From assembly GCA_961205875.1 (NCBI GenBank), contig OY540815.1:2108001-2172000 (forward strand): a stretch of DNA of 64,000 nt, read 5' to 3'. Under the pieces are notes generated by a model. It made no database searches. It was given only the letters and a program-made list of their open reading frames with translations, and had not been told where the DNA came from. Made by a program: the position numbers and the translations under genes. Source of the DNA: Sialis fuliginosa (lineage: Eukaryota; Arthropoda; Insecta; Megaloptera; Sialidae). Below are positions 1-64,000 of this stretch, in pieces (the stretch's first letter is position 1; every line of letters begins with the position of its first letter).

Positions 1-1800
1 AACTTAAACATAAACTTAATCATAAACTTAATCATAAACTTAATCATAAACTTAAACATAAAATTAAACATAAATTAAAACATAAACTTAATCATTAACT
101 TAAACATAAACTTAATCATAAACTTAATCATAAACTTAATCATAAACTTAAACATAAACTTAATCATAAACTTAATCATAAACTTAATCATAAACTTAAA
201 CATAAATTAAAACATAAACTTAATCATAAACTTAATCATAAACTTAATCATAAACTTGATCATAAACTTAATCATTAACTTAAACACAAACTTAATCATA
301 AACTTAATCATAAACTTAATCATAAACTTAATCATAAACTTAAACATAAACTTAAACATATACTTAATCATAAACTTAATCATAAACTTAATCATAAACT
401 TAATCATAAACTTAAACATAAACTTAATCATAAACTTAATCATAAACTTAATCATAAACTTAATTATAATCTTAAACATAAACTTAAACATGAACTTAAT
501 CATAAACTCAATCATAAACTTAAACATAAATTAAAACATAAACATAAACATAAACTTAAACATAAACTTAATCGTAAACTTAATCATAAACTTAATCATA
601 AACTTTATCATAAACTTAATCATAAACTTAATCATAAACTTAATCATAAACTTAAACATAAATTAAAACATAAACATAAACATAAACTTAAACATAAACT
701 TAATCATAAACTTAATCATAAACTTAATAATAAACTTAAACATAAACTTAAACATAAATTTAAACATAAATTTAAAAAAAACTTAAATATAAACATAATC
801 ATAAACTTAATCATAAACTTAAACATAAACTTAAAATCATAAACTTAATCATAAACTTAATCATAAACTTAATCATAAACTTAAACATAAACATAAACAT
901 AAACTTATTCATAAACTTAATCATAAACTTAAACATAAACAAAATCATAAACTTAATCATAAACTTAAACATAAACTTAAATATAAACCTAATCATAAAC
1001 TTAATCATAAACTTAATCATAAACTTAATCATAAACTTAAACATAAACTAAAATATATACTTAATCATAAATTTAATCATAAAGTTAGTCATTAACTTAA
1101 ACATAAATTAAAACATAAACTAAAACATAAAATTTAACATAAACTTAATGATAAACTTAATCATAAACTTAATCATAAACTTTAACATTAACTTAATCAT
1201 AAACTTAATCATAAACTTAATCATAAACTCAATCATAAACTTAATCATAAACTTAATCATAAACTTAATCATAAACTTAAACATAAACTTAAACATAAAC
1301 TTAATCATAAACTTAATCATAAACTTAAACATAAACTAAAACATATACTTAATCATAAATTTAATCATAAAGTTAATCATAAACTTAAACATAAATTAAA
1401 ACATAAACTTAAACATAAAATTAAACATAAACTTAATCATAAACTTAATCATAAACTTAATCATAAACTTAAACTTAAACTTAATTATAAACTTAATCAT
1501 AAACTTAATCATTAACTTAATCATAAACTCAATCATAAACTTAAACATAAATTAAAACATAAACTTAAACATAAAATTAAACATAAACTTAATCATAAAC
1601 TTAATCATAAACTTAATCATAAACTTAAACTTAAACTTAATTATAAACTTAATCATAAACTTAATCATTAACTTAATCATAAACTCAATCATAAACTTAA
1701 ACATAAATTAAAACATAAACATAAACATAAACATAAACATAAACATAAACATAAACATAAACATAAACTTAAACATAAACATAAACATAAACATAAACAA
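1..1800 (+). repeat. A-block 1 (left end outside window)
   Basis: The dominant 12-mer is AAACTTAATCAT, interspersed with AAACAT hexamers. Landmarks in order: TTGATCAT near 257, AAACACAAAC near 284, TTATAATCTT near 465, an A8 run near 774, AAAATCAT near 834, and CAAAATC near 939. The block ends in an AAACAT run that abuts core 1. Same length and landmarks as 17076-18875. Confidence 0.93.
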
Positions 1801-1868
1801 CACATTTCGTCTCAATTCGATTTTGAATAAAAAAATAATTATATTAAATTTTCCTCAAGACAGATTAG

Positions 1869-1891
1869 ATACAAATCGACTCGATTTGTAT
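1869..1891. other. Core palindrome (reference copy)
   Basis: A perfect inverted repeat with 11-bp arms ATACAAATCGA and TCGATTTGTAT around a single C. It lies 68 bp into the core. Type B cores keep 10-bp arms because the base after TCGATTTGTA is A. A symmetric dimeric protein site or a small cruciform is possible. Confidence 0.9.
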
Positions 1892-1950
1892 TAATTCGTT
1901 GTATTTTGTATTCATTCGTTAATAGTTGTCTTGATTCGTTTCAAACAGTC
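1891..1950 (+). promoter_or_regulatory. Three ATTCGTT iterons at 20-bp spacing (reference copy)
   Basis: ATTCGTT occurs at 1894-1900, 1914-1920 and 1934-1940, exactly 20 bp apart (about two helical turns), each preceded by TT plus one variable base. The first two units also share TTGT at the same relative position. The array directly follows the palindrome. Both truncated cores (10 and 12) keep it. In type B the third heptamer is ATTCGCT or ATTCGCG. Regulatory function is inferred. Confidence 0.6.
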
Positions 1951-2023
1951 AATTGGAACTAGTTTTTTAAATCAATTCGAAAAGTTTCAGCGCTAATCGG
2001 AAGTTTAGAGTCAAAATGTCTAG

Positions 2024-2058
2024 ATTTGACTTAATTTGATGTTATTTGAGTGATATGA
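2024..2058 (+). promoter_or_regulatory. ATTTGA array at 10-bp spacing (reference copy)
   Basis: ATTTGA starts at 2024, 2034 and 2044, followed by a variant ATATGA at 2053, just before the T-block starts. This puts the motif on one helical face. Type B cores have lost one base between the first two units, making that step 9 bp. The function is unknown. Confidence 0.55.
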
Positions 2059-2064
2059 TGCAAG

Positions 2065-3030
2065 TTTATGTTTAGGTTTATGTTTAAGTTTATGTTTAAG
2101 TTTATGTTTAAGTTTATGTTTAAGTTTAAGTTTATATTTATGTTTATGTTTATGTTTATGTTTATGTTTAAGTTTATGTTTAAGTTTATGTTTAAGTTTA
2201 TGTTTAAGTTTATGTTTATGTTTATGTTTATATTTATGTTTATGTTTATGTTTATGTTTATGTTTATGTTTATGTTTATGTTTATGTTTATGTTTATGTT
2301 TAAGTTTATGTTTAAGTTTATGTTTAAGTTAATGTTTAAGTTTATGTTTAAGTTTATGTTTATGTTTAAGTTTATGTTTAAGTTTATGTTTAAGTTTATG
2401 TTTATGTTTATGTTTATGTTTATGTTTATGTTTATGTTTATGTTTATGTTTATGTTTATGTTTATGTTTATGTTTAAGTTTATGTTTATGTTTAAGTTTA
2501 TGTTTATGTTTATGTTTATATTTATGTTTATGTTTATGTTTATGTATATGTTTATGTTTATGTTTATGTTTATGTTTATGTTTATGTTTATGTTTATGTT
2601 TATGTTTATGTTTATGTTTATGTTTATGTTTATGTTTATGTTTATGTTTATGTTTATGTTTATGTTTATGTTTATGTTTATGTTTATGTTTATGTTTATG
2701 TTTATGTTTATGTTTATGTTTATGTTTATGTTTATGTTTATGTTTATGTTTATGTTTATATTTATGTTTATGTTTATGTTTATGTTTATGTTTATGTTTA
2801 TGTTTAAGTTTATGTTTATCTTTATGTTTATGTTACTACTTATGTTTATGTTTATGTTTATGTTTATGTTTATGTTTACGTTTTAATTTATGTTTAAGTT
2901 TATGTTTATGTTTATGTTTATGTTTATGTTTAAGTTTATGTTTAAATTTATATTTAAGTTTAAGTTTATGTTTAAGCTAATGTTCAAATTTATGTTTAAA
3001 TTTATGTTTAAGTTTATGTTTAAGTTTATT
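2065..3030 (-). repeat. T-block 1
   Basis: 966 bp of TTTATG and TTTAAG hexamers, with one TTTAGG near 2074. It ends with TTTATCTTT, TTACTACTT and ACGTTTTAATT landmarks and the left half of the T-to-A junction. The 272-residue open frame it contains is only the hexamer read as Met-Phe/Lys-Phe. Confidence 0.93.
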
Positions 3031-3080
3031 TAAATATAAACTTAACATATTATTATTTAAACATAAACTTAATCATAAGC
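2944..3080. other. T-to-A junction module (reference copy)
   Basis: A conserved module in which the G-bearing strand switches to the C-bearing strand. The left part carries AAGCTAATGTTCAAATT. The centre has 8-bp arms AAGTTTAT (3022-3029) and ATAAACTT (3036-3043) around TTAAAT. The right part carries AACATATTATTATTTAAAC, then AATCATAAGC. The same module switches strands after 4810, 8487, 11450, 14527, 17016, 20099, 21879, 26276, 26950, 32142, 41900, 45559, 49170, 52559, 56356, 60003 and 63853. It is partial on its left at 27307 and altered on its right at 34108. Type B copies have TGCTAATG in place of AGCTAATG. Confidence 0.85.
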
Positions 3081-3412: not shown

Positions 3413-3676
3413 CACATTTCGTCTCAATTCGATTTTGAATAAAAAAATAATTATATTAAATTTTCCTCAAGACAGATTAGATACAAATCGACTCGATTTG
3501 TATTAATTCGTTGTATTTTGTATTCATTCGTTAATAGTTGTCTTGATTCGTTTCAAACAGTCAATTGGAACTAGTTTTTTAAATCAATTCGAAAAGTTTC
3601 AGCGCTAATCGGAAGTTTAGAGTCAAAATGTCTAGATTTGACTTAATTTGATGTTATTTGAGTGATATGATGCAAG
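3413..3676 (+). other. Core 2 (type A, 264 bp)
   Basis: Matches core 1 by eye over the full length, including palindrome, iterons and the ATTTGA array. Confidence 0.9.
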
Positions 3677-4810
3677 TTTATGTTTAGGTTTATGTTTAAG
3701 TTTATGTTTAAGTTTATGTTTAAGTTTATGTTTAAGTTTAAGTTTATATTTATGTTTATGTTTATGTTTATGTTTATGTTTAAGTTTATGTTTAAGTTTA
3801 TGTTTAAGTTTATGTTTAAGTTTATGTTTATGTTTATGTTTATATTTATGTTTATGTTTATGTTTATGTTTATGTTTATGTTTATGTTTATGTTTATGTT
3901 TATGTTTATGTTTAAGTTTATGTTTAAGTTTATGTTTAAGTTAATGTTTAAGTTTATGTTTAAGTTTATGTTTATGTTTATGTTTATGTTTATGTTTATG
4001 TTTATGTTTATGTTTATGTTTATGTTTATGTTTATGTTTATGTTTATGTTTATGTTTATGTTTATGTTTATGTTTATGTTTATGTTTATGTTTATGTTTA
4101 TGTTTATGTTTATGTTTATGTTTATGTTTACGTTTTAATTTATGTTTAAGTTTATGTTTATGTTTATGTTTATGTTTAAGTTTATGTTTATGTTTATGTT
4201 TATATTTATGTTTATGTTTATGTTTATGTTTATGTTTATGTTTATGTTTATGTTTATGTTTATGTTTATGTTTAAGTTTATGTTTAAGTTTATGTTTAAG
4301 TTAATGTTTAAGTTTATGTTTAAGTTTATGTTTATGTTTATGTTTATGTTTATGTTTATGTTTATGTTTATGTTTATGTTTATGTTTATGTTTAAGTTTA
4401 TGTTTATGTTTAAGTTTATGTTTATGTTTATGTTTATATTTATGTTTATGTTTATGTTTATGTATATGTTTATGTTTATGTTTATGTTTATGTTTATGTT
4501 TATGTTTATGTTTATGTTTATGTTTATGTTTATGTTTATGTTTATGTTTATGTTTATGTTTATGTTTATGTTTATGTTTATGTTTATGTTTATGTTTATG
4601 TTTATGTTTATGTTTATGTTTATGTTTATGTTTATGTTTATGTTTATGTTTATGTTTATGTTTACGTTTTAATTTATGTTTAAGTTTATGTTTATGTTTA
4701 TGTTTATGTTTAAGTTTATGTTTAAATTTATATTTAAGTTTAAGTTTATGTTTAAGCTAATGTTCAAATTTATGTTTAAATTTATGTTTAAGTTTATGTT
4801 TAAGTTTATT
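3677..4810 (-). repeat. T-block 2
   Basis: 1134 bp. Contains two copies of the ACGTTTTAATTTATG end landmark (near 4130 and 4664), so part of the block is tandemly duplicated (about 534 bp). It lacks TTACTACTT. The length difference from T-block 1 is 168 bp, which is 28 hexamers. Confidence 0.92.
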
Positions 4811-7545
4811 TAAATATAAACTTAACATATTATTATTTAAACATAAACTTAATCATAAGCTTAAACATAAACTTAAACATAAACTTAATCATAAACTTAA
4901 TCATAAACTTAATCATAAACTTAAACATAAATTAAAACATAAACATAAACATAAACTTAAACATAAACTTAATCATAAACTTAATCATAAACTTAATCAT
5001 AAACTTAAACATAAAATTAAACATAAATTAAAACATAAACTTAATCATTAACTTAAACATAAACTTAATCATAAACTTAATCATAAACTTAATCATAAAC
5101 TTAAACATAAACTTAATCATAAACTTAATCATAAACTTAATCATAAACTTAAACATAAATTAAAACATAAACATAAACATAAACTTAAACATAAACTTAA
5201 TCATAAACTTAATCATAAACTTAATCATAAACTTAAACATAAAATTAAACATAAATTAAAACATAAACTTAATCATTAACTTAAACATAAACTTAATCTT
5301 AAACTTAATCATAAACTTAATCATAAACTTAATCATAAACTTATATATAATCTTAAACATAAACTTAAACATGAACTTAATCATAAACTTAATCATAAAC
5401 ATAATCATAAACTTAATCATAAACTTAATCATAAACTTAATCATAAACTTAATCATAAACTTGATCATAAACTTAATCATAAACTTAATCATAAACTTAA
5501 TCATAAACTTAAACATAAACTTAAACATATACTTAATCATAAATTTAATCATAAAGTTAATCATAAACTTAAACATAAATTAAAACATAAACTTAAACAT
5601 AAAATTAAACATAAACTTAATCATAAACTTAATCATAAACTTAATCATAAACTTAATCATAAACTTAAACATAAACTTAATCATAAACTTAATCATAAAC
5701 TTAATAATAAACTTAATCATAAACTTAAACATAAAATTAAACATAAATTAAAACATAAACTTAATCATTAACTTAAACATAAACTTAATCATAAACTTAA
5801 TCATAAACTTAATCATAAACTTAAACATAAACTTAATCATAAACTTAATCATAAACTTAATCATAAACTTAAACATAAATTAAAACATAAACATAAACAT
5901 AAACTTAAACATAAACTTTATCATAAACTTAATCATAAACTTAATCATAAACTTAAACATAAAATTAAACATAAATTAAAACATAAACTTAATCATTAAC
6001 TTAAACATAAACTTAATCTTAAACTTAATCATAAACTTAATCATAAACTTAATCATAAACTTATATATAATCTTAAACATAAACATAAACATGAACTTAA
6101 TCATAAACTTAATCATAAACTTGATCATAAACTTAATCATAAACTTAAACACAAACTTAATCATAAACTTAATCATAAACTTAATCATAAACTTAATCAT
6201 AAACTTAAACATAAACTTAAACATATACTTAATCATAAATTTAATCATAAAGTTAATCATAAACTTAAACATAAATTAAAACATAAACTTAAACATAAAA
6301 TTAAACATAAACTTAATCATAAACTTAATCATAAACTTAAACATAAACTTAATCATAAACTTAAACATAAACTTAATCATAAACTTAATCATAAACTTAA
6401 TCATAAACTTAATTATAATCTTAAACATAAACTTAAACATAAACTTAATCATAAACTCAATCATAAACTTAAACATAAACTTAAACATAAATTTAAACAT
6501 AAATTTAAAAAAAACTTAAATATAAACATAATCATAAACTTAATCATAAACTTAAACATAAACTTAAAATCATAAACTTAATCATAAACTTAATCATAAA
6601 CTTAATCATAAACTTAAACATAAACATAAACATAAACTTATTCATAAACTTAATCATAAACTTAAACATAAACAAAATCATAAACTTAATCATAAACTTA
6701 AACATAAACTTAAATATAAACCTAATCATAAACTTAATCATAAACTTAATCATAAACTTAATCATAAACTAAAATATATACTTAATCATAAATTTAATCA
6801 TAAAGTTAGTCATTAACTTAAACATAAATTAAAACATAAACTAAAACATAAAATTTAACATAAACTTAATGATAAACTTAATCATAAACTTAATCATAAA
6901 CTTTAACATTAACTTAATCATAAACTTAATCATAAACTTAATCATAAACTTAATCATAAACTCAATCATAAACTTAATCATAAACTTAATCATAAACTTA
7001 ATCATAAACATAAACATAAACTTAAACATAAACTTAATCATAAACTTAATCATAAACTTAAACATAAACTTAAACATATACTTAATCATAAATTTAATCA
7101 TAAAGTTAATCATAAACTTAAACATAAATTAAAACATAAACTTAAACATAAAATTAAACATAAACTTAATCATAAACTTAATCATAAACTTAATCATAAA
7201 CTTAAACTTAAACTTAATTATAAACTTAATCATAAACTTAATTATTAACTTAATCATAAACTCAATCATAAACTTAAACATAAATTAAAACATAAACTTA
7301 AACATAAAATTAAACATAAACTTAATCATAAACTTAATCATAAACTTAATCATAAACTTAAACTTAAACTTAATTATAAACTTAATCATAAACTTAATCA
7401 TTAACTTAATCATAAACTCAATCATAAACTTAAACAAAAATTAAAACATAAACATAAACATAAACATAAACATAAACATAAACATAAACATAAACATAAA
7501 CATAAACATAAACATAAACATAAACATAAACATAAACATAAACAA
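4811..7545 (+). repeat. A-block 3 (long, 2735 bp)
   Basis: The longest A-block of the first 25 kb. The section with AAAATTAAAC, AAATTAAAAC and AATCATTAAC recurs at 4920-5060, 5160-5280, 5720-5770 and 5940-6000, pointing to internal tandem amplification. The A8 run, AAAATCAT and CAAAATC landmarks follow from about 6500. Identical in length to A-block 9. Confidence 0.92.
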
Positions 7546-7809
7546 CACATTTCGTCTCAATTCGATTTTGAATAAAAAAATAATTATATTAAATTTTCCT
7601 CAAGACAGATTAGATACAAATCGACTCGATTTGTATTAATTCGTTGTATTTTGTATTCATTCGTTAATAGTTGTCTTGATTCGTTTCAAACAGTCAATTG
7701 GAACAAGTTTTTTAAATCAATTCGAAAAGTTTCAGCGCTAATCGGAAGTTTAGAGTCAAAATGTCTAGATTTGACTTAATTTGATGTTATTTGAGTGATA
7801 TGATGCAAG
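7546..7809 (+). other. Core 3 (type A, 264 bp)
   Basis: Differs from core 1 by GGAACAAG in place of GGAACTAG. Core 9 shares this change, which ties the two copies together as duplicates. Confidence 0.9.
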
Positions 7810-8487
7810 TTTATGTTTAGGTTTATGTTTAAGTTTATGTTTAAGTTTATGTTTAAGTTTATGTTTAAGTTTAAGTTTATATTTATGTTAATGTTTATGT
7901 TTATGTTTAAGTTTATGTTTAAGTTTATGTTTAAGTTTATGTTTAAGTTTATGTTTATGTTTATGTTTATGTTTATATTTATGTTTATGTTTATGTTTAT
8001 GTTTATGTTTATGTTTATGTTTATGTTTATGTTTATGTTTATGTTTATGTTTATGTTTATGTTTATGTTTATGTTTATGTTTATGTTTATGTTTATGTTT
8101 ATGTTTATGTTTATGTTTATGTTTATGTTTATGTTTATGTTTATGTTTATGTTTATGTTTATGTTTATGTTTATGTTTATGTTTATGTTTATGTTTATGT
8201 TTATGTTTATGTTTATGTTTATGTTTATGTTTATGTTTATGTTTAAGTTTATGTTTAAGTTTATGTTTAAGTTTATGTTTATCTTTATGTTTATGTTACT
8301 ACTTATGTTTATGTTTATGTTTATGTTTATGTTTATGTTTACGTTTTAATTTATGTTTAAGTTTATGTTTATGTTTATGTTTATGTTTAAGTTTATGTTT
8401 AAATTTATATTTAAGTTTAAGTTTATGTTTAAGCTAATGTTCAAATTTATGTTTAAATTTATGTTTAAGTTTATGTTTAAGTTTATT
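7810..8487 (-). repeat. T-block 3
   Basis: 678 bp, mostly an uninterrupted TTTATG run (about 7980-8245). It has a TTAATG variant near 7888, shared with T-block 9, and ends with the TTACTACTT and junction landmarks. T-block 9 has the same start but is 720 bp (120 hexamers) longer. Confidence 0.92.
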
Positions 8488-10190
8488 TAAATATAAACTT
8501 AACATATTAATATTTAAACATAAACTTAATCATAAGCTTAAACATAAACTTAAACATAAACTTAATCATAAACTTAATCATAAACTTAATCATAAACTTA
8601 AACATAAAATTAAACATAAATTAAAACATAAACTTAATCATTAACTTAAACATAAACTTAATCATAAACTTAATCATAAACTTAATCATAAACTTAAACA
8701 TAAACTTAATCATAAACTTAATCATAAACTTAATCATAAACTTAAACATAAATTAAAACATAAACTTAATCATAAACTTAATCATAAACTTAATCATAAA
8801 CTTGATCATAAACTTAATCATTAACTTAAACACAAACTTAATCATAAACTTAATCATAAACTTAATCATAAACTTAATCATAAACTTAAACATAAACTTA
8901 AACATATACTTAATCATAAACTTAATCATAAACTTAATCATAAACTTAATCATAAACTTAAACATAAACTTAATCATAAACTTAATCATAAACTTAATCA
9001 TAAACTTAATTATAATCTTAAACATAAACTTAAACATGAACTTAATCATAAACTCAATCATAAACTTAAACATAAATTAAAACATAAACATAAACATAAA
9101 CTTAAACATAAACTTAATCGTAAACTTAATCATAAACTTAATCATAAACTTTATCATAAACTTAATCATAAACTTAATCATAAACTTAATCATAAACTTA
9201 AACATAAATTAAAACATAAACATAAACATAAACTTAAACATAAACTTAATCATAAACTTAATCATAAACTTAATAATAAACTTAAACATAAACTTAAACA
9301 TAAATTTAAACATAAATTTAAAAAAAACTTAAATATAAACATAATCATAAACTTAATCATAAACTTAAACATAAACTTAAAATCATAAACTTAATCATAA
9401 ACTTAATCATAAACTTAATCATAAACTTAAACATAAACATAAACATAAACTTATTCATAAACTTAATCATAAACTTAAACATAAACAAAATCATAAACTT
9501 AATCATAAACTTAAACATAAACTTAAATATAAACCTAATCATAAACTTAATCATAAACTTAATCATAAACTTAATCATAAACTTAAACATAAACTAAAAT
9601 ATATACTTAATCATAAATTTAATCATAAAGTTAGTCATTAACTTAAACATAAATTAAAACATAAACTAAAACATAAAATTTAACATAAACTTAATGATAA
9701 ACTTAATCATAAACTTAATCATAAACTTTAACATTAACTTAATCATAAACTTAATCATAAACTTAATCATAAACTCAATCATAAACTTAATCATAAACTT
9801 AATCATAAACTTAATCATAAACTTAAACATAAACTTAAACATAAACTTAATCATAAACTTAATCATAAACTTAAACATAAACTAAAACATATACTTAATC
9901 ATAAATTTAATCATAAAGTTAATCATAAACTTAAACATAAATTAAAACATAAACTTAAACATAAAATTAAACATAAACTTAATCATAAACTTAATCATAA
10001 ACTTAATCATAAACTTAAACTTAAACTTAATTATAAACTTAATCATAAACTTAATCATTAACTTAATCATAAACTCAATCATAAACTTAAACATAAATTA
10101 AAACATAAACATAAACATAAACATAAACATAAACATAAACATAAACATAAACATAAACTTAAACATAAACATAAACATAAACATAAACAA
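8488..10190 (+). repeat. A-block 4
   Basis: 1703 bp with the same landmark order as A-block 1 (TTGATCAT, AAACACAAAC, TTATAATCTT, AATCGTAAAC, A8 run, AAAATCAT, CAAAATC). Its junction right half reads ATTAATATTT where others read ATTATTATTT. Confidence 0.92.
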
Positions 10191-10454
10191 CACATTTCGT
10201 CTCAATTCGATTTTGAATAAAAAAATAATTATATTAAATTTTCCTCAAGACAGATTAGATACAAATCGACTCGATTTGTATTAATTCGTTGTATTTTGTA
10301 TTCATTCGTTAATAGTTGTCTTGATTCGTTTCAAACAGTCAATTGGAACTAGTTTTTTAAATCAATTCGAAAAGTTTCAGCGCTAATCGGAAGTTTAGAG
10401 TCAAAATGTCTAGATTTGACTTAATTTGATGTTATTTGAGTGATATGATGCAAG
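10191..10454 (+). other. Core 4 (type A, 264 bp)
   Basis: Type A consensus, with no difference from core 1 seen by eye. Confidence 0.9.
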
Positions 10455-11450
10455 TTTATGTTTAGGTTTATGTTTAAGTTTATGTTTAAGTTTATGTTTA
10501 AGTTTATGTTTAAGTTTAAGTTTATATTTATGTTTATGTTTATGTTTATGTTTATGTTTAAGTTTATGTTTAAGTTTATGTTTAAGTTTATGTTTAAGTT
10601 TATGTTTATGTTTATGTTTATATTTATGTTTATGTTTATGTTTATGTTTATGTTTATGTTTATGTTTATGTTTATGTTTATGTTTATGTTTATGTTTAAG
10701 TTTATGTTTAAGTTTATGTTTAAGTTAATGTTTAAGTTTATGTTTAAGTTTATGTTTATGTTTAAGTTTATGTTTAAGTTTATGTTTAAGTTTATGTTTA
10801 TGTTTATGTTTATGTTTATGTTTATGTTTATGTTTATGTTTATGTTTATGTTTATGTTTATGTTTATGTTTAAGTTTATGTTTATGTTTAAGTTTATGTT
10901 TATGTTTATGTTTATATTTATGTTTATGTTTATGTTTATGTATATGTTTATGTTTATGTTTATGTTTATGTTTATGTTTATGTTTATGTTTATGTTTATG
11001 TTTATGTTTATGTTTATGTTTATGTTTATGTTTATGTTTATGTTTATGTTTATGTTTATGTTTATGTTTATGTTTATGTTTATGTTTATGTTTATGTTTA
11101 TGTTTATGTTTATGTTTATGTTTATGTTTATGTTTATGTTTATGTTTATGTTTATATTTATGTTTATGTTTATGTTTATGTTTATGTTTATGTTTATGTT
11201 TATGTTTATGTTTATGTTTAAGTTTATGTTTAAGTTTATGTTTAAGTTTATGTTTATCTTTATGTTTATGTTACTACTTATGTTTATGTTTATGTTTATG
11301 TTTACGTTTTAATTTATGTTTAAGTTTATGTTTATGTTTATGTTTATGTTTAAGTTTATGTTTAAATTTATATTTAAGTTTAAGTTTATGTTTAAGCTAA
11401 TGTTCAAATTTATGTTTAAATTTATGTTTAAGTTTATGTTTAAGTTTATT
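10455..11450 (-). repeat. T-block 4
   Basis: 996 bp, five hexamers longer than T-block 1 and otherwise with the same landmarks. It opens with TTTATG plus one TTTAGG and ends with TTACTACTT and the junction. Confidence 0.92.
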
Positions 11451-50669: not shown

Positions 50670-50932
50670 CACATTTCGTCTCAATTCGATTTTGAATAAA
50701 AAAATAATTATATTAAATTTTCCTCAAGACAGATTAGATACAAATCGACTCGATTTGTAATAATTCGTTGTATTTTGTATTCATTCGTTAATAGTAGTCT
50801 TGATTCGCGTCAAACAGTCAATTGGAACTAGTTTTTTAAATCAATTCGAAAAGTTTCAGCGCTAATCGGAAGTTAAGAGTCAAAATGTCTAGATTTGACT
50901 TATTTGATGTTATTTGAGTGATATGATGCAAG
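50670..50932 (+). other. Core 15 (type B, 263 bp)
   Basis: Type B with GATTCGCGTC, shared only with core 16. Confidence 0.9.
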
Positions 50933-52559: not shown

Positions 52560-54196
52560 TAAATATAAACTTAACATATTATTATTTAAACATAAACTTA
52601 ATCATAAGCTTAAACATAAACTTAAACATAAACTTAATCATAAACTTAATCATAAACTTAATCATAAACTTAAACATAAAATTAAACATAAATTAAAACA
52701 TAAACTTAATCATTAACTTAAACATAAACTTAATCATAAACTTAATCATAAACTTAGTCATAAACTTAAACATAAACTTAATCATAAACTTAATCATAAA
52801 CTTAATCATAAACTTAAACATAAATTAAAACATAAACATAAACATAAACTTAAACATAAACTTAATCATAAACTTAATCATAAACTTAATCATAAACTTA
52901 ATCATAAACTTAAACATAAAATTAAACATATATTAAAAAATAAACTTAATCATTAACTTAAACATAAACTTAATCTTAAACTTAATCATTAACCTAATCA
53001 TAAACTTAAACATAAACTTAATCATAAACTTAATCATAAACTTAATCATAAACTTATATTTAATCTTAAACATAAACTTAAACATGAACTTAATCATAAA
53101 CTTAATCATATACTTAATCATAAACTTAATCATAAACTTAATCATAAACTTGATCATAAACTTAATCATAAACTTAAACACAAACTTAATCATAAACTTA
53201 AACATAAACTTAATCATAAACTTAATCATAAACTTAAACATAAACATAAACATATACTTAATCATAAACTTAATCATAAACTTAATCATAAACTTGATCA
53301 TAAACTTAATCATAAACTTAAACACAAACTTAATCATAAACTTAAACATAAACTTAATCATAAACTTAATCATAAACTTAAACATAAACATAAACATATA
53401 CTTAATCATAAATTTAATCATAAAGTTAATCATAAACTTTAACATAAATTAAAACATAAACTTAAACATAAAATTAAACATAAACTTAATTATAAACTTA
53501 ATCATAAACTTAATCATAAACTTAATCATAAACTTAAACATAAACTTAATCATAAACTTAATCATAAACTTAATCATAAACTTAATTATAATCTTAAACA
53601 TAAACTTAAACATGAACTTAATCATAAACTCAATCATAAACTTAAACATAAATTAAAACATAAACATAAACATAAACTTAAACATAAACTTAATCATAAA
53701 CTTAATCATAAACTTAATAATAAACTTAAACATAAACTTAAACATAAATTTAAACATAAATTTAAAAAAAACTTAAATATAAACATAATCATAAACTTAA
53801 TCATAAACTTAAACATAAACTTAAAATCATAAACTTAATCATAAACTTAATCATTAACTTAATCATAAACTTAAACATAAACTTAAACATATACTTAGTC
53901 ATAAATTTAATCATAAAGTTAATCATAAACTTAAACATAAATTAAAACATAAACTTAAACATAAAATTAAACATAAACTTAATCATAAACTTAATCATAA
54001 ACTTAATCATAAACTTAAACTTAAACTTAATTATAAACTTAATCATAAACTTAATCATTAACTTAATCATAAACTCAATCATAAACTTAAACATAAATTA
54101 AAACATAAACATAAACATAAACATAAACATAAACATAAACATAAACATAAACATAAACATAAACATAAACATAAACATAAACATAAACATAAACAA
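52560..54196 (+). repeat. A-block 18 (type B, with 144-bp duplication)
   Basis: 1637 bp, which is 1493 bp without its tandem duplication at 53107-53394. A private change ATATATTAAAAAATAAAC lies near 52928. Confidence 0.92.
53107..53394 (+). repeat. 144-bp tandem duplication in A-block 18
   Basis: CATATACTTA occurs at 53107, 53251 and 53395. The two 144-bp units between them carry the same TTGATCAT and AAACACAAAC variants. 144 bp is 24 hexamers. Confidence 0.9.
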
Positions 54197-54459
54197 CACA
54201 TTTCGTCTCAATTCGATTTTGAATAAAAAAATAATTATATTAAATTTTCCTCAAGACAGATTAGATACAAATCGACTCGATTTGTAATAATTCGTTGTAT
54301 TTTGTATTCATTCGTTAATAGTAGTCTTGATTCGCGTCAAACAGTCAATTGGAACTAGTTTTTTAAATCAATTCGAAAAGTTTCAGCGCTAATCGGAAGT
54401 TAAGAGTCAAAATGTCTAGATTTGACTTATTTGATGTTATTTGAGTGATATGATGCAAG
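54197..54459 (+). other. Core 16 (type B, 263 bp)
   Basis: Carries GATTCGCGTC, so it is the sister of core 15. Confidence 0.9.
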
Positions 54460-56356
54460 TTTATGTTTAAGTTTATGTTTAAGTTTATGTTAAAGTTTAT
54501 GTTTAAGTTTATGTTTATGTTTATGTTTATGTTTATGTTTATGTTTATGTTTATGTTTATGTTTATGTTTATGTTTATGTTTATGTTTATGTTTATGTTT
54601 ATGTTTATGTTTATGTTTATGTTTATGTTTATGTTTATGTTTGTGTTTGTGTTTGTGTTTATGTTTATGTTTATGTTTATGTTTATGTTTATGTTTATGT
54701 TTATGTTTATGTTTATGTTTATGTTTATGTTTATGTTTTAATTTATGTTTAAGTTTATGATTATGTTTATGTTTATGTTTATGTTTATGTTTATGTTTAT
54801 GTTTATGTTTATGTTTATGTTTATGTTTATGTTTATGTTTATGTTTATGTTTATGTTTATGTTTATGTTTATATTTATGTTTATGTTTATGTTTAAGTTT
54901 ATGTTTACGTTTATGTTTATGATTAAGTTTATGTTTAAGTTTATGTTTAAGTTTATGTTTAAGTTTATGTTTAAGTTTATGTTTAAGTTTATGTTTAAGT
55001 TTATGTTTAAGTTTATGTTTATGTTTATGTTTATGTTTATGTTTATGTTTATGTTTATGTTTATGTTTATGTTTAAGTTTTTGTTTAAGTTTATGTTTAA
55101 GTTAATGTTTAAGTTTATGTTTAAGTTTATGTTTATGTTTAAGTTAATGTTTAAGTTTATGTTTAAGTTTATGTTTACGTTTATGTTTATGATTAAGTTT
55201 ATGTTTAAGTTTATGTTTAAGTTTATGTTTATGTTTATGTTTATGTTTATGTTTATGTTTATGTTTATGTTTATGTTTATGTTTATGTTTATGTTTATGT
55301 TTATGTTTATGTTTATGTTTATGTTTATGTTTATGTTTATGTTTATGTTTATGTTTATGTTTATGTTTATGTTTATGTTTATGTTTATGTTTATGTTTAT
55401 GTTTAAGTTTATGTTTAAGTTTATGTTTAAGTTTATGTTTAAGTTTATGTTTATGTTTATGTTTATATTTATGTTTATGTTTATGTTTATGTTTATGTTT
55501 ATGTTTATGTTTATGTTTAAGTTTATGTTTAAGTTTATGTTTAAGTTAATGTTTAAGTTTATGTTTAAGTTTATGTTTATGTTAAAGTTTATGTTTAAGT
55601 TTATGTTTAAGTTTATGTTTATGTTTATGTTTATGTTTATGTTTATGTTTATGTTTATGTTTATGTTTATATTTAAGTTTATGTTTATGTTTATGTTTAT
55701 ATTTATGTTTATGTTTATGTTTATGTTTATGTTTATGTTTATGTTTATGTTTATGTTTATGTTTATGTTTATGTTTATGTTTATGTTTATGTTTATGTTT
55801 ATGTTTATGTTTATGTTTATGTTTATGTTTATATTTATGTTTATGTTTATGTTTAAGTTTATGTTTAAGTTTATGTTTATGTTTACGTTTATGTTTATGA
55901 TTAAGTTTATGTTTAAGTTTATGTTTAAGTTTATGTTTAAGTTTATGTTTATGTTTATGTTTATGATTATGTTTATGTTTATGTTTATGTTTATGTTTAT
56001 GTTTATGTTTATGTTTATGTTTATGTTTATGTTTTAATTTATGTTTAAGTTTATGTTTATGTTTATGTTTAAGTTTATGTTTTAATTTATGTTTAAGTGT
56101 ATGTTTATGTTTATGTTTAAGTTTATGTTTAAGTTTATGTTTAAGTTTATGTTTAAGTTTATGTTTATCTTTATGTTTATGTTTATACTTTAAGTTTATG
56201 TTTATGTTTATGTGTACGTTTTAATTTATGTTTAAGCTTATGTTTATGTTTATGTTTAAGTTTATGTTTAAATTTATATTTAAGTTTAAGTTTATGTTTA
56301 TGCTAATGTTCAAATTTATGTTTAAATTTATGTTTAAGTTTATGTTTAAGTTTATT
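54460..56356 (-). repeat. T-block 18 (type B)
   Basis: 1897 bp, five hexamers longer than T-block 16. It keeps the TTTGTG triplet (near 54641), which its core sister's T-block 17 lacks. Confidence 0.92.
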
Positions 56357-57873
56357 TAAATATAAACTTAACATATTATTATTTAAACATAAACTTAATC
56401 ATAAGCTTAAACATAAACTTAAACATAAACTTAATCATAAACTTAATCATAAACTTAATCATAAACTTAAACATAAAATTAAACATAAATTAAAACATAA
56501 ACTTAATCATTAACTTAAACATAAACTTAATCATAAACTTAATCATAAACTTAGTCATAAACTTAAACATAAACATAATCATAAACTTAATCATAAACTT
56601 AATCATAAACTTAAACATAAATTAAAACATAAACATAAACATAAACTTAAACATAAACTTAATCATAAACTTAATCATAAACTTAATCATAAACTTAATC
56701 ATAAACTTAAACATAAAATTAAACATAAATTAAAAAATAAACTTAATCATTAACTTAAACATAAACTTAATCTTAAACTTAATCATTAACCTAATCATAA
56801 ACTTAAACATAAACTTAATCATAAACTTAATCATAAACTTAATCATAAACTTATATTTAATCTTAAACATAAACTTAAACATGAACTTAATCATTAACTT
56901 AATCATATACTTAATCATAAACTTAATCATAAACTTAATCATAAACTTGATCATAAACTTAATCATAAACTTAAACACAAACTTAATCATAAACTTAAAC
57001 ATAAACTTAATCATAAACTTAATCATAAACTTAAACATAAACATAAACATATACTTAATCATAAATTTAATCATAAAGTTAATCATAAACTTTAACATAA
57101 ATTAAAACATAAACTTAAACATAAAATTAAACATAAACTTAATTATAAACTTAATCATAAACTTAATCATAAACTTAATCATAAACTTAAACATAAACTT
57201 AATCATAAACTTAATCATAAACTTAATCATAAACTTAATTATAATCTTAAACATAAACTTAAACATGAACTTAATCATAAACTCAATCATAAACTTAAAC
57301 ATAAATTAAAACATAAACATAAACATAAACTTAAACATAAACTTAATCATAAACTTAATCATAAACTTAATAATAAACTTAAACATAAACTTAAACATAA
57401 ATTTAAACATAAATTTAAAAAAAACTTAAATATAAACATAATCATAAACTTAATCATAAACTTAAACATAAACTTAAAATCATAAACTTAATCATAAACT
57501 TAATCATTAACTTAATCATAAACTTAAACATAAACTTAAACATATACTTAGTCATAAATTTAATCATAAAGTTAATCATAAACTTAAACATAAATTAAAA
57601 CATAAACTTAAACATAAAATTAAACATAAACTTAATCATAAACTTAATCATAAACTTAATCATAAACTTAAACTTAAACTTAATTATAAACTTAATCATA
57701 AACTTAATCATTAACTTAATCATAAACTCAATCATAAACTTAAACATAAATTAAAACATAAACATAAACATAAACATAAACATAAACATAAACATAAACA
57801 TAAACATAAACATAAACATAAACATAAACATAAACATAAACATAAACATAAACATAAACATAAACATAAACAA
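56357..57873 (+). repeat. A-block 19 (type B)
   Basis: 1517 bp. Private changes include AAACATAATC near 56572 and AATCATTAAC near 56890. Confidence 0.92.
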
Positions 57874-58136
57874 CACATTTCGTCTCAATTCGATTTTGAA
57901 TAAAAAAATAATTATATTAAATTTTCCTCAAGACAGATTAGATACAAATCGACTCGATTTGTAATAATTCGTTGTATTTTGTATTCATTCGTTAATAGTA
58001 GTCTTGATTCGCTTCAAACAGTCAATTGGAACTAGTTTTTTAAATCAATTCGAAAAGTTTCAGCGCTAATCGGAAGTTAAGAGTCAAAATGTCTAGATTT
58101 GACTTATTTGATGTTATTTGAGTGATATGATGCAAG
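57874..58136 (+). other. Core 17 (type B, 263 bp)
   Basis: Type B with GATTCGCTTC; no private change seen. Confidence 0.9.
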
Positions 58137-60003
58137 TTTATGTTTAAGTTTATGTTTAAGTTTATGTTAAAGTTTATGTTTAAGTTTATGTTTATGTTTA
58201 TGTTTATGTTTATGTTTATGTTTATGTTTATGTTTATGTTTATGTTTATGTTTATGTTTATGTTTATGTTTATGTTTATGTTTATGTTTATGTTTGTGTT
58301 TGTGTTTGTGTTTATGTTTATGTTTATGTTTATGTTTATGTTTATGTTTATGTTTATGTTTATGTTTATGTTTATGTTTATGTTTATGTTTATGTTTATG
58401 TTTATGTTTTAATTTATGTTTAAGTTTATGATTATGTTTATGTTTATGTTTATGTTTATGTTTATGTTTATGTTTATGTTTATGTTTATGTTTATGTTTA
58501 TGTTTATGTTTATGTTTATATTTATGTTTATGTTTATGTTTACGTTTATGTTTATGATTAAGTTTATGTTTAAGTTTATGTTTAAGTTTATGTTTAAGTT
58601 TATGTTTAAGTTTATGTTTAAGTTTATGTTTAAGTTTATGTTTAAGTTTATGTTTATGTTTATGTTTATGTTTATGTTTATGTTTATGTTTATGTTTATG
58701 TTTATGTTCAAGTTTTTGTTTAAGTTTATGTTTAAGTTAATGTTTAAGTTTATGTTTAAGTTTATGTTTATGTTTAAGTTAATGTTTAAGTTTATGTTTA
58801 AGTTTATGTTTACGTTTATGTTTATGATTAAGTTTATGTTTAAGTTTATGTTTAAGTTTATGTTTATGTTTATGTTTATGTTTATGTTTATGTTTATGTT
58901 TATGTTTATGTTTATGTTTATGTTTATGTTTATGTTTATGTTTATGTTTATGTTTATGTTTATGTTTATGTTTATGTTTATGTTTATGTTTATGTTTATG
59001 TTTATGTTTATGTTTATGTTTATGTTTATGTTTAAGTTTATGTTTATGTTTATGTTTTAATTTATGTTTAAGTTTATGATTATGTTTATGTTTATGTTTA
59101 TGTTTATGTTTATGTTTATGTTTATGTTTATGTTTATGTTTATGTTTATGTTTATGTTTATGTTTATGTTTATGTTTATGTTTATGTTTATATTTATGTT
59201 TATGTTTATGTTTAAGTTTATGTTTACGTTTATGTTTATGATTAAGTTTATGTTTAAGTTTATGTTTAAGTTTATGTTTAAGTTTATGTTTAAGTTTATG
59301 TTTAAGTTTATGTTTAAGTTTATGTTTAAGTTTATGTTTATGTTTATGTTTATGTTTATGTTTATGTTTATGTTTATGTTTATGTTTATGTTTAAGTTTT
59401 TGTTTAAGTTTATGTTTAAGTTAATGTTTAAGTTTATGTTTAAGTTTATGTTTATGTTTAAGTTAATGTTTAAGTTTATGTTTAAGTTTATGTTTACGTT
59501 TATGTTTACGTTTATGTTTATGATTAAGTTTATGTTTAAGTTTATGTTTAAGTTTATGTTTATGTTTATGTTTATGTTTATGTTTATGTTTATGTTTATG
59601 TTTATGTTTATGTTTATGTTTATGTTTATGTTTATGTTTATGTTTATGTTTATGTTTATGTTTATGTTTATGTTTATGTTTATGTTTATGTTTATGTTTA
59701 TGTTTATGTTTATGTTTATGTTTATGTTTATGTTTATGTTTAAGTTTATGTTTAAGTTTATGTTTAAGTTTATGTTTAAGTTTATGTTTAAGTTTATGTT
59801 TAAGTTTATGTTTATCTTTATGTTTATGTTTATACTTTAAGTTTATGTTTATGTTTATGTGTACGTTTTAATTTATGTTTAAGCTTATGTTTATGTTTAT
59901 GTTTAAGTTTATGTTTAAATTTATATTTAAGTTTAAGTTTATGTTTATGCTAATGTTCAAATTTATGTTTAAATTTATGTTTAAGTTTATGTTTAAGTTT
60001 ATT
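58137..60003 (-). repeat. T-block 19 (type B, rearranged inside)
   Basis: 1867 bp, but not the standard content. The section starting TTTAATTTATGTTTAAG-TTTATGATTATG occurs at 58416 and again at 59064 (648-bp period). The usual right-middle part with TTTATATTTAAG is missing. Gain and loss leave the total length normal. Confidence 0.9.
58416..59711 (-). repeat. 648-bp tandem duplication in T-block 19
   Basis: The TTTAAGTTTATGATTATG start and the following TTTATATTTATG, TTTACGTTTATGATTAAG and AAGTTTTTG landmarks occur twice at a 648-bp offset (108 hexamers). The first copy lacks one TTTAAG near 58540 and reads TTCAAG near 58708. Confidence 0.8.
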
Positions 60004-61502
60004 TAAATATAAACTTAACATATTATTATTTAAACATAAACTTAATCATAAGCTTAAACATAAACTTAAACATAAACTTAATCATAAACTTAATCATAAA
60101 CTTAATCATAAACTTAAACATAAAATTAAACATAAATTAAAACATAAACTTAATCATTAACTTAAACATAAACTTAATCATAAACTTAATCATAAACTTA
60201 GTCATAAACTTAAACATAAACTTAATCATAAACTTAATCATAAACTTAATCATAAACTTAAACATAAATTAAAACATAAACATAAACATAAACTTAAACA
60301 TAAACTTAATCATAAACTTAATCATAAACTTAATCATAAACTTAATCATAAACTTAAACATAAAATTAAACATAAATTAAAAAATAAACTTAATCATTAA
60401 CTTAAACATAAACTTAATCTTAAACTTAATCATTAACCTAATCATAAACTTAAACATAAACTTAATCATAAACTTAATCATAAACTTAATCATAAACTTA
60501 TATTTAATCTTAAACATAAACTTAAACATGAACTTAATCATAAACTTAATCATATACTTAATCATAAACTTAATCATAAACTTAATCATAAACTTGATCA
60601 TAAACTTAATCATAAACTTAAACACAAACTTAATCATAAACTTAAACATAAACTTAATCATAAACTTAATCATAAACTTAAACATAAACATAAACATATA
60701 CTTAATCATAAATTTAATCATAAAGTTAATCATAAACTTTAACATAAATTAAAACATAAACTTAAACATAAAATTAAACATAAACTTAATTATAAACTTA
60801 ATCATAAACTTAATCATAAACTTAATCATAAACTTAAACATAAACTTAATCATAAACTTAATCATAAACTTAATCATAAACTTAATTATAATCTTAAACA
60901 TAAACTTAAACATGAACTTAATCATAAACTCAATCATAAACTTAAACATAAATTAAAACATAAACATAAACATAAACTTAAACATAAACTTAATCATAAA
61001 CTTAATCATAAACTTAATAATAAACTTAAACATAAACTTAAACATAAATTTAAACATAAATTTAAAAAAAACTTAAATATAAACATAATCATAAACTTAA
61101 TCATAAACTTAAACATAAACTTAAAATCATAAACTTAATCATAAACTTAATCATTAACTTAATCATAAACTTAAACATAAACTTAAACATATACTTAGTC
61201 ATAAATTTAATCATAAAGTTAATCATAAACTTAAACATAAATTAAAACATAAACTTAAACATAAAATTAAACATAAACTTAATCATAAACTTAATCATAA
61301 ACTTAATCATAAACTTAAACTTAAACTTAATTATAAACTTAATCATAAACTTAATCATTAACTTAATCATAAACTCAATCATAAACTTAAACATAAATTA
61401 AAACATAAACATAAACATAAACATAAACATAAACATAAACATAAACATAAACATAAACATAAACATAAACATAAACATAAACATAAACATAAACATAAAC
61501 AA
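60004..61502 (+). repeat. A-block 20 (type B)
   Basis: 1499 bp with the standard type B landmarks and no private rearrangement seen. Confidence 0.92.
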
Positions 61503-61765
61503 CACATTTCGTCTCAATTCGATTTTGAATAAAAAAATAATTATATTAAATTTTCCTCAAGACAGATTAGATACAAATCGACTCGATTTGTAATAATTCG
61601 TTGTATTTTGTATTCATTCGTTAATAGTAGTCTTGATTCGCTTCAAACAGTCAATTGGAACTAGTTTTTTAAATCAATTCGAAAAGTTTCAGCGCTAATC
61701 GGAAGTTAAGAGTCAAAATGTCTAGATTTGACTTATTTGATGTTATTTGAGTGATATGATGCAAG
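61503..61765 (+). other. Core 18 (type B, 263 bp)
   Basis: Type B with GATTCGCTTC; no private change seen. Confidence 0.9.
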
Positions 61766-63853
61766 TTTATGTTTAAGTTTATGTTTAAGTTTATGTTTAA
61801 GTTTATGTTTAAGTTTATGTTTATGTTTATGTTTATGTTTATGTTTATGTTTATGTTTATGTTTATGTTTATGTTTATGTTTATGTTTATGTTTGTGTTT
61901 GTGTTTATGTTTATGTTTATGTTTATGTTTATGTTTATGTTTATGTTTATGTTTATGTTTATGTTTATGTTTATGTTTATGTTTATGTTTATGTTTATGT
62001 TTATGTTTTAATTTATGTTTAAGTTTATGATTATGTTTATGTTTATGTTTATGTTTATGTTTATGTTTATGTTTATGTTTATGTTTATGTTTATGTTTAT
62101 GTTTATGTTTATGTTTATGTTTATGTTTATGTTTATGTTTATGTTTATGTTTATGTTTAAGTTTATGTTTACGTTTATGTTTATGATTAAGTTTATGTTT
62201 AAGTTTATGTTTAAGTTTATGTTTAAGTTTTTGTTTAAGTTTATGTTTAAGTTAATGTTTAAGTTTATGTTTAAGTTTATGTTTATGTTTATGTTTATGT
62301 TTATGTTTATGTTTATGTTTATGTTTATGTTTATGTTTATGTTTAAGTTTTTGTTTAAGTTTATGTTTAAGTTAATGTTTAAGTTTATGTTTAAGTTTAT
62401 GTTTATGTTTAAGTTAATGTTTAAGTTTATGTTTAAGTTTATGTTTACGTTTATGTTTATGATTAAGTTTATGTTTAAGTTTATGTTTAAGTTTATGTTT
62501 ATGTTTATGTTTAAGTTTATGTTTAAGTTTATGTTTATGTTTATGTTTATGATTAAGTTTATGTTTAAGTTTATGTTTAAGTTTATGTTTAAGTTTTTGT
62601 TTAAGTTTATGTTTAAGTTAATGTTTAAGTTTATGTTTAAGTTTATGTTTATGTTTATGTTTATGTTTATGTTTATGTTTATGTTTATGTTTATGTTTAT
62701 GTTTATGTTTATGTTTATGTTTATGTTTATGTTTAAGTTTTTGTTTAAGTTTATGTTTAAGTTAATGTTTAAGTTTATGTTTAAGTTTATGTTTATGTTT
62801 AAGTTAATGTTTAAGTTTATGTTTAAGTTTATGTTTACGTTTATGTTTATGATTAAGTTTATGTTTAAGTTTATGTTTAAGTTTATGTTTATGTTTATGT
62901 TTAAGTTTATGTTTAAGTTTATGTTTATGTTTAAGTTAATGTTTAAGTTTATGTTTAAGTTTATGTTTACGTTTATGTTTATGTTTATGTTTATGTTTAT
63001 GTTTATGTTTATGTTTATGTTTATGTTTATGTTTATGTTTATGTTTATGTTTATGTTTATGTTTATGTTTATGTTTATGTTTATGTTTATGTTTATGTTT
63101 ATGTTTATGTTTATGTTTATGTTTATGTTTATGTTTAAGTTTATGTTTAAGTTTATGTTTAAGTTTATGTTTAAGTTTATGTTTATGTTTATGTTTATAT
63201 TTATGTTTATGTTTATGTTTATGTTTATGTTTATGTTTATGTTTAAGTTTATGTTTAAGTTTATGTTTAAGTTAATGTTTAAGTTTATGTTTATGTTTAA
63301 GTTTATGTTTAAGTTTATGTTTATGTTTATGTTTATGTTTAAGTTTATGTTTAAGTTTATGTTTAAGTTAATGTTTAAGTTTATGTTTATGTTTAAGTTT
63401 ATGTTTAAGTTTATGTTTAAGTTTATGTTTATGTTTATGTTTATGTTTATGTTTATGTTTATGTTTATGTTTATGTTTATGTTTATGTTTATGTTTAAGT
63501 TTATGTTTAAGTTTATGTTTATGTTTACGTTTTAATTTATGTTTAAGTTTATGTTTATGTTTATGTTTAAGTTTATGTTTTAATTTATGTTTAAGTGTAT
63601 GTTTATGTTTATATTTAAGTTTATGTTTAAGTTTATGTTTAAGTTTATGTTTAAGTTTATGTTTATCTTTATGTTTATGTTTATACTTATGTTTATGTTT
63701 ATGTTTATGTGTACGTTTTAATTTATGTTTAAGTTTATGTTTATGTTTATGTTTAAGTTTATGTTTAAATTTATATTTAAGTTTAAGTTTATGTTTATGC
63801 TAATGTTCAAATTTATGTTTAAATTTATGTTTAAGCTTATGTTTAAGTTTATT
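61766..63853 (-). repeat. T-block 20 (type B, longest of its array)
   Basis: 2088 bp. Two TTTGTG units near 61891. It has an internal tandem duplication near 62185-62940 and a doubled AAGTTAATG section near 63270 and 63367. The tail reads TATACTTATG, not TATACTTTAAG, and the A-block after its junction opens with AAACATTAAC. Confidence 0.92.
62185..62940 (-). repeat. Tandem duplication of about 366-390 bp in T-block 20
   Basis: GATTAAG landmarks at 62185 and 62461 recur at 62551 and 62851 (offsets 366 and 390). The 24-bp difference is four extra TTTATG hexamers in the second copy. Confidence 0.75.
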
Positions 63854-64000
63854 TAAATATAAACTTAACATATTATTATTTAAACATAAACTTAATCATA
63901 AGCTTAAACATAAACTTAAACATTAACTTAATCATAAACTTAATCATAAACTTAATCATAAACTTAAACATAAAATTAAACATAAATTAAAACATAAACT
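63854..64000 (+). repeat. A-block 21 (cut by window end)
   Basis: Junction right half followed by 12-mers and AAAATTAAAC. It continues past the window. Confidence 0.92.

What the first reader, a model, noticed from the sequence alone, without database searches (positions are those of the whole stretch)
1..64000. Satellite that flips strand about every 0.4-3 kb: a chain of giant inverted repeats
Most simple-sequence satellites keep one orientation for long distances. Here the + strand alternates between C-only A-blocks and G-only T-blocks some 40 times. One dedicated sequence sits at most A-to-T switches and another at T-to-A switches. The reproducible switch points suggest a selected or mechanistically maintained architecture, not random inversions. 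Each T-block/A-block pair could fold into a long hairpin or cruciform.
Basis: seen in the sequence. Interest (0 to 1): 0.8.

Follow-up and report, generated by a model that had tools for sequence, protein, structure and literature searches.

The report
Head-to-tail satellite with opposed arms
The apparent strand flips in this alderfly satellite come from one repeating unit, made of two hexamer-repeat arms pointing in opposite directions around a short unique core, copied head to tail many times rather than flipped many times.

Summary
The alternation is real: 40 switches between C-rich A-blocks and G-rich T-blocks. The window lies on chromosome 7 of the alderfly Sialis fuliginosa (C7:2,108,001-2,172,000). 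But the satellite does not flip 40 times. All 18 cores (16 full, 2 truncated; ~264 bp) at A-to-T switches are on the + strand, and so are all 20 T-to-A junctions (19 full, 1 partial). Two A-to-T switches lack the core. The unit is [A-arm - core - T-arm - junction], copied head to tail. Exact direct repeats reach 5,150 bp, exact inverted ones 131 bp. The two arms use different hexamer dialects and match at about 86% near the core, no better within a unit than between units; same-side arms match at 95-97% there. The same architecture occurs on C4 and, with older cores, on C5. True inversions of whole units exist outside the window; two breakpoints read out lie in pure (ATGTTT)n. Best reading: a composite-unit satellite amplified by direct unequal exchange, possibly born from a foldback-like element. 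Facing arms can fold in silico, but I found no sign that this is maintained by selection.

The parts
1..64000 (+). Part of a composite-unit satellite array (C7:2,108,001-2,172,000; array seen from about 2.083 to 2.61 Mb in the stretches sampled), no N in the window
1..1800 (+). A-arm (AAACTT/AATCAT/AAACAT hexamers) of the first unit shown
1801..2064 (+). core, full copy
2065..3024 (+). T-arm (GTTTAT/GTTTAAG hexamers) of the first unit shown
3025..3062 (+). T-to-A junction; 10-bp palindrome arms TTAAGTTTAT/ATAAACTTAA begin just upstream of it
3413..3676 (+). core, full copy
4805..4842 (+). T-to-A junction
7546..7809 (+). core, full copy
8482..8519 (+). T-to-A junction
10191..10454 (+). core, full copy
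11445..11482 (+). T-to-A junction
13328..13591 (+). core, full copy
14522..14559 (+). T-to-A junction
16393..16656 (+). core, full copy
17011..17048 (+). T-to-A junction
18876..19139 (+). core, full copy
20094..20131 (+). T-to-A junction
20482..20745 (+). core, full copy
21874..21911 (+). T-to-A junction
24615..24878 (+). core, full copy
26271..26308 (+). T-to-A junction
26500..26515 (+). A-to-T switch without core (read as a deletion)
26945..26982 (+). T-to-A junction
27236..27250 (+). A-to-T switch without core (read as a deletion that leaves a 55-bp T stub)
27302..27339 (+). T-to-A junction
30599..30798 (+). core, 5'-truncated (core positions 64-264)
32137..32174 (+). T-to-A junction
32999..33262 (+). 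core, full copy
34103..34131 (+). T-to-A junction, partial
35186..35356 (+). core, 5'-truncated (core positions 94-264)
35357..41894 (+). longest T-arm, about 6.5 kb
41895..41932 (+). T-to-A junction
43418..43680 (+). core, full copy (second sequence variant)
45554..45591 (+). T-to-A junction
47041..47303 (+). core, full copy (second variant)
49165..49202 (+). T-to-A junction
50670..50932 (+). core, full copy (second variant)
52554..52591 (+). T-to-A junction
54197..54459 (+). core, full copy (second variant)
56351..56388 (+). T-to-A junction
57874..58136 (+). core, full copy (second variant)
59998..60035 (+). T-to-A junction
61503..61765 (+). core, full copy (second variant)
63848..63885 (+). 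T-to-A junction

Best explanation
This is a composite-unit satellite array in Sialis fuliginosa. Its unit is [A-arm of hexamers - ~264-bp core - T-arm of hexamers in the opposite sense - short T-to-A junction], repeated head to tail with a core-to-core distance of 1.6-8.2 kb. SHOWN: one unit orientation throughout the window; copies related by long direct, not inverted, identity; arm lengths that vary from unit to unit; two A-to-T switches without a core; the same architecture on C4 and C5; whole-unit inversions elsewhere in the array, with two breakpoints read out inside a pure (ATGTTT)n tract that both arms share. INFERRED: arms change length by slippage and unequal exchange; blocks of one to several units spread by unequal crossing-over or segmental duplication; because the two arms share (AAACAT)n in inverted sense, rare recombination or template switching between arms inverts units or drops the core. 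INFERRED, weaker (about 0.4): the unit descends from a foldback-like element (inverted arms of tandem repeats round a core), later amplified. No host function is needed to explain it.
For: Core 18 of 18 and junction 20 of 20 on + in the window. Longest exact direct repeats are 5,150 bp (2,904/19,973), 2,926 and 1,806 bp; longest exact inverted repeat 131 bp. AATCAT is 22-36% of the three counted hexamers in A-blocks and 0-2% in reverse-complemented T-blocks (36 of the 41 blocks measured). One neighbouring pair of units: A-A 1.000 and T-T 0.986, against A-rcT 0.864 and 0.855; for one distant pair A-A 0.913 and T-T 0.935. From 43.4 kb on the spacing is 3,527-3,677 bp (5 intervals). Nearby C7 cores are somewhat more alike (0.991 under 5 kb, 0.976 at 60-200 kb, but 0.982 beyond 200 kb; Spearman -0.12, 1 of 300 permutations as low). 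C4 and C5 arrays have the same order. Genome-wide the AATCAT 36-mer is 3,367 forward to 306 reverse. Inversion breakpoints; the sequence there matches the reverse complement of the window exactly for 282 (L021, from a point in the (ATGTTT)n tract) and 100 bases (L025).
Against: Unit orientation is not uniform outside the window: 53 plus (the window's 18 included) and 7 minus among the C7 cores that I fetched, 8 plus and 3 minus on C4; 196 forward and 30 reverse genome-wide for one core pattern. Inverted exact matches of 60 bases or more are numerous (33,642 listings, all but 512 pure (AAACAT)n). The A-rcT alignment score exceeds its order-shuffled control (1,030 against 770), so a common origin of the two arms is possible, but the shuffle also breaks register; even shuffled arms are 0.84 alike. 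At the left edge of the array (C7 about 2,084,201-2,084,820) one palindromic unit core-loop-inverted core occurs, so inverted structure did form there. The foldback origin has no target-site duplication or dispersed solo copy behind it.
Confidence: 0.85

Rival explanations
1. One reading: a chain of giant inverted repeats kept by selection or by a mechanism, for hairpin or cruciform formation (for example a centromeric or replication role).
For: Facing arms fold strongly in silico (-224.1 kcal/mol, z -36 against 20 shuffles; -253.8, z -27). The core holds a 23-base stretch, mostly an inverted repeat, that is identical in the C7, C4, newer C5 and older C5 majority rows although C5 to C7 cores average 0.816. 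The architecture is kept on three chromosomes.
Against: No partner-specific matching of arms (0.864 within, 0.863 between units). The arms have drifted to different dialects. The core alone does not fold better than shuffles (z -1.1, 25 of 200 shuffles as good). The fold z-scores follow from any C-rich block facing a G-rich block. The 23-base stretch is exact in only 47 of 60 C7, 8 of 11 C4 and 4 of 6 C5 cores.
Confidence: 0.07
2. Assembly or read artefact: foldback chimeras or false joins created the alternation.
For: Highly repetitive region; a 200-N gap lies at the left edge of the array (C7:2,084,001-2,084,200). Reads could not be inspected.
Against: Foldback chimeras would give near-perfect inverted copies with both core orientations; here arms match at about 86% and cores face one way. 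There are no N in the window. The same order recurs on C4 and C5 with diverged sequence. The assembly is from 65-fold HiFi reads with QV 63.7 (PMC11549539, section 5 read); HiFi reads usually exceed 10 kb (recalled), several units long.
Confidence: 0.04
3. Many independent local inversions of one hexamer satellite.
For: Whole-unit inversions exist elsewhere in the array (L021, L025, L026, L033).
Against: In the window 38 of 40 switches reuse one core or one junction, in one orientation, and dialect does not invert with strand. Real inversions leave the A/T skew pattern of a unit unchanged and show up only in dialect and core direction.
Confidence: 0.02

Closest known systems
Tetris foldback transposon and its TIR-220 satellite, Drosophila virilis (PMC4079207; passages and section 20 seen)
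   Same: Inverted arms made of tandem repeats, and satellite-like arrays derived from such a structure.
   Different: In Tetris the ~220-bp repeats inside the arms were amplified into the satellite; here the whole arm-core-arm unit is repeated, arms are hexamers, and mobility was not shown (no search for target-site duplications could be completed).
Foldback (FB) elements of Drosophila (structure recalled; only titles in the reference list of PMC4079207 seen)
   Same: Long inverted arms of short tandem repeats, variable arm length, zones of different repeat dialect from core outward.
   Different: FB elements are dispersed and mobile; the copies found here lie in arrays on three chromosomes and mobility is untested.
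Higher-order-repeat satellites such as human alpha satellite (recalled)
   Same: Complex unit repeated head to tail with near identity between neighbours.
   Different: The unit contains two opposed simple-sequence arms, so base skew alternates inside each unit, and unit length varies over the first 43 kb.
Human satellite arrays with strand inversions (recalled; one search gave a listing only, none of it read)
   Same: Occasional orientation breakpoints inside simple satellites, as seen here outside the window.
   Different: In the window the alternation is not produced by such inversions.

Membership tests
Satellite (tandem array) with a composite unit | unit repeated head to tail | tested here: met
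   18 of 18 cores and 20 of 20 junctions + in the window; outside it 7 of 60 C7 cores fetched are reversed (the 60 include the window's 18)
Satellite (tandem array) with a composite unit | near identity between units in direct orientation | tested here: met
   direct exact repeats to 5,150 bp; A-A 1.000 and T-T 0.986 for one neighbouring pair, 0.913 and 0.935 for one distant pair
Higher-order repeat in the strict sense | fixed multimer period | tested here: not met
   core to core 1,606-8,232 bp over the window; near constant (3,527-3,677) only from 43.4 kb on. Not filed as a strict higher-order repeat
Foldback (FB) transposon | long inverted arms built of tandem repeats round a middle | tested here: inconclusive
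   arms inverted and tandem, but about 86% complementary near the core, 0.836 (0.607-0.881, n=19) near the junction, and in different dialects on C7; one C5 pair 0.879, with three shuffled controls at 0.847-0.903 but lower scores (198-206 against 229)
Foldback (FB) transposon | dispersed copies flanked by target-site duplications | not tested
   whole-genome searches for diverged copies did not complete (call numbers in Tried and rejected)
Foldback (FB) transposon | mobilised by a transposase | not tested
   no transposase search was made
Satellite with independent strand inversions | units facing both ways with breakpoints at the switches | tested here: not met
   not met in the window; units facing both ways do occur elsewhere on C7 (53 plus, 7 minus)
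Centromeric satellite | present at the centromere of every chromosome or bound by centromeric histone | not testable with these tools
   no chromatin data; the capped list (100 of 3,673 places) starts on C4, which hints at absence from C1-C3 but does not prove it

The most novel reading that the evidence does not exclude
The unit is a foldback-like element whose arms are simple-sequence hexamer tracts and which turned itself into a satellite. Its ancestor was the palindrome [A-arm - core - loop - inverted core - T-arm] still seen at the array's left edge. The (AAACAT)n tracts shared by its opposed arms promote both head-to-tail amplification and whole-unit inversion, giving a satellite whose alternating skew is built in and blind to unit orientation.
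Probability: 0.3. Interest if true: 0.6.

Novelty: new variant of a known kind. Interest (0 to 1): 0.4.

Why it matters
It shows that alternating base skew in a satellite need not mean repeated inversion: a unit with opposed arms, tandemly copied, gives the same picture and hides the true inversions. The array also offers readable breakpoints where inverted simple-sequence tracts recombined, and three chromosomal loci of different age for following how such a unit spreads. If a foldback origin is proved, it would add a second route, next to Tetris, from foldback elements to satellites.

Tried and rejected
Rejected: independent inversions (core and junction strand constant in the window); selected hairpin (arms not co-evolving, core fold ordinary); RNA family (0 Rfam hits in window 1-12,000; the rest was not scanned); presence in prokaryote or viral collections (0 exact matches: two patterns in viral contigs, one in genome contigs).

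The order-shuffle control for arm similarity is imperfect because it breaks hexamer register, so I rely on the within-unit (16 units) against between-unit (40 random pairs) comparison. My first loose motif search allowed up to 5 edits and was replaced by BLAST of the core; its minus-strand hits in L021, L025 and L026 were confirmed by it. One search counted core matches aligned over 150 or more positions, one per place; the 78% fragment at L014:3337, a 52-base minus piece in L025 and loci without cores are not in it. The place list is incomplete beyond its stated cap: it omits exact matches in L001 and L002 and two exact minus matches in L021, so I use only its whole counts and I do not read absence from it or from the similar list. 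Searches for the satellite in print; no listing describes a Sialis satellite. Searches are the only ones that ask for its sequence or its genus. The Sialis lutaria genome note (passages only) holds neither 'satellite' nor 'repeat'.

Not answered: dispersed or diverged copies of the core, so solo copies and target-site duplications remain untested.
Full report
WHERE IT IS. The window is C7:2,108,001-2,172,000 of a 392,097,322-base genome in 20 contigs. C7 begins with a CCTAA telomere tract, C20 is a 15,590-base contig with mitochondrial genes, recognised by eye, and C1 is 47,092,443 bases. A genome note for the alderfly Sialis fuliginosa gives 392.1 Mb, a longest scaffold of 47,092,443 bp, chromosome 7 of 24.93 Mb and a 15.59-kb mitochondrion (PMC11549539, outline and section 5 read), so the source is ikSiaFuli1.1, chromosome 7.

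THE OBSERVATION. Segmentation by C and G gives 40 switches between 21 A-blocks and 20 T-blocks. A-blocks hold 4,669 C to 145 G, T-blocks 178 C to 4,743 G. The core sits at 18 of 20 A-to-T switches (16 full, 2 truncated) and the junction at 20 of 20 T-to-A switches (19 full, 1 partial).

NOT FLIPS BUT UNITS. All cores and junctions in the window are on the + strand; the only minus match, 33 bases at 30,598, is the core's own inverted repeat. Exact direct repeats reach 5,150 bp (2,904 against 19,973), exact inverted ones 131 bp, although shorter inverted matches are many, nearly all pure (AAACAT)n. The hexamer AATCAT makes up 22-36% of the three counted hexamers in A-blocks but 0-2% in T-blocks read as reverse complement (36 of 41 blocks measured). 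A-arms of one neighbouring pair are identical over 1,455 bases and T-arms 0.986, while A against reversed T is 0.864; a distant pair gives A-A 0.913 and T-T 0.935. Over the 300 bases next to the core, A against reversed T of the same unit is 0.864 (16 units) and of another unit 0.863 (40 pairs), against 0.972 and 0.953 for same-side arms; round the T-to-A junction it is 0.836 (19 junctions). The unit is therefore [A-arm - core - T-arm - junction], head to tail, and the alternation is copied with it. From 43.4 to 61.5 kb the spacing is 3,527-3,677 bp; before that it varies.

THE WIDER ARRAY AND REAL INVERSIONS. A core pattern with up to 2 mismatches has 196 forward and 30 reverse matches in the genome; the 100 places listed lie on C4, C5 and C7 (the list is incomplete). 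A C4-type core pattern with up to 1 mismatch has 79 forward and 7 reverse places, all listed: one on C5, the others on C4. The AATCAT 36-mer has 3,367 forward and 306 reverse matches; the 100 listed all lie on C4. Among the cores that I fetched, C7 has 53 plus (18 of them in the window) and 7 minus, C4 8 plus and 3 minus, C5 6 plus. In the minus units of L021, L025, L026 and L033 the dialect is inverted as well; in the C4 minus units of L031 no AATCAT-type dialect shows, so there it cannot be judged. Because a unit has opposed arms, turning it round leaves the A/T skew unchanged; only core direction and dialect show it. Two breakpoints read out, near C7:2,446,640 and 2,586,300, run from a T-arm straight into a reversed A-arm within pure (ATGTTT)n, without a core; sequence there matches the reverse complement of the window exactly for 282 and 100 bases. 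That is direct sequence evidence for rearrangement through a tract that both arms share; the mechanism, recombination or template switching, is inferred.

OLDER RELATIVES. C4 carries cores between 33,685,786 and 34,126,025 of both orientations. C5 has at least six units in 32,852,001-32,862,250: one core is 93% like the window's, five are 73-75% and show no match to its first ~70 bases, yet all have the same A-arm, core, T-arm order. On C5 both arms use an AAATTT/AAACAT dialect, which fits arms that were once alike. C4 junctions (12 rows, 8 distinct places by my count) and the C5 junctions read by eye lack a 27-base stretch present on C7. At the left end of the C7 array a palindrome of core, short loop and inverted core occurs (about 2,084,201-2,084,820; 263 of 270 aligned bases identical, one 3-base gap), next to a 200-N gap. 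It may be a remnant of an ancestral palindromic unit, but it is a single case at a contig end. The C4 left edge has 3 kb of one-sense hexamers without a core.

FOLDING. Facing arms fold at -224.1 kcal/mol (z -36) and -253.8 (z -27), each against 20 shuffles; these shuffles scatter the strand-specific blocks, so the z-scores show only that opposite blocks can pair. The core alone is ordinary (z -1.1). A 23-base stretch CAAATCGACTCGATTTGTATTAA is identical in the four majority rows compared, but exact in only 47 of 60 C7, 8 of 11 C4 and 4 of 6 C5 copies; I cannot say whether that is selection.

KNOWN KINDS. It works like a satellite with a composite unit and meets the head-to-tail and near-identity features; it lacks the fixed period of a strict higher-order repeat. 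It resembles a foldback element in its arms; the nearest printed case found is Tetris of Drosophila virilis (PMC4079207, passages and section 20), where repeats inside foldback arms seeded a satellite. Target-site duplications, dispersed copies and a transposase were not tested, so it is not filed as a foldback element. No paper describing this satellite appeared.

VERDICT.

Noticed in passing
C7:2,598,740-2,605,000 approx. (L033 from 8,740; L026 1-5,020): The array is interrupted by GC-rich DNA with an open frame of 332 codons that holds a CCHC-like zinc knuckle near its end, resembling a retrotransposon gag (judged by eye, no family search), and by GC-rich short repeats.
   Followed up: partly
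L014 4,201-4,820 (C7 about 2,084,201-2,084,820): Palindromic pair of cores; the sequence after the core's 3' end resembles the core's own 5' start (about 260 bases apart), as if the core were one monomer of an older tandem repeat.
   Followed up: partly
L031 881, 4,916, 8,951 (C4): Three minus-strand units spaced exactly 4,035 bp apart, a very regular stretch.
   Followed up: no
L032 about 1,350-1,410 and 1,755-2,210 (C5): Local runs of other hexamer variants, (AAACGT)n left and (GCTTAT)n right of one core, showing that each arm expands its own variants.
   Followed up: no
L043 (C4:33,681,301-33,684,300): 3 kb of one-sense hexamers (ATGTTTAAATTT dialect) without core or flip at the edge of the C4 array.
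   Followed up: no
window 3,025-3,062 and other junctions: C7 junctions carry a 27-base stretch absent from C4 and C5 junctions seen, flanked by TATTTAAA on both sides.
   Followed up: partly
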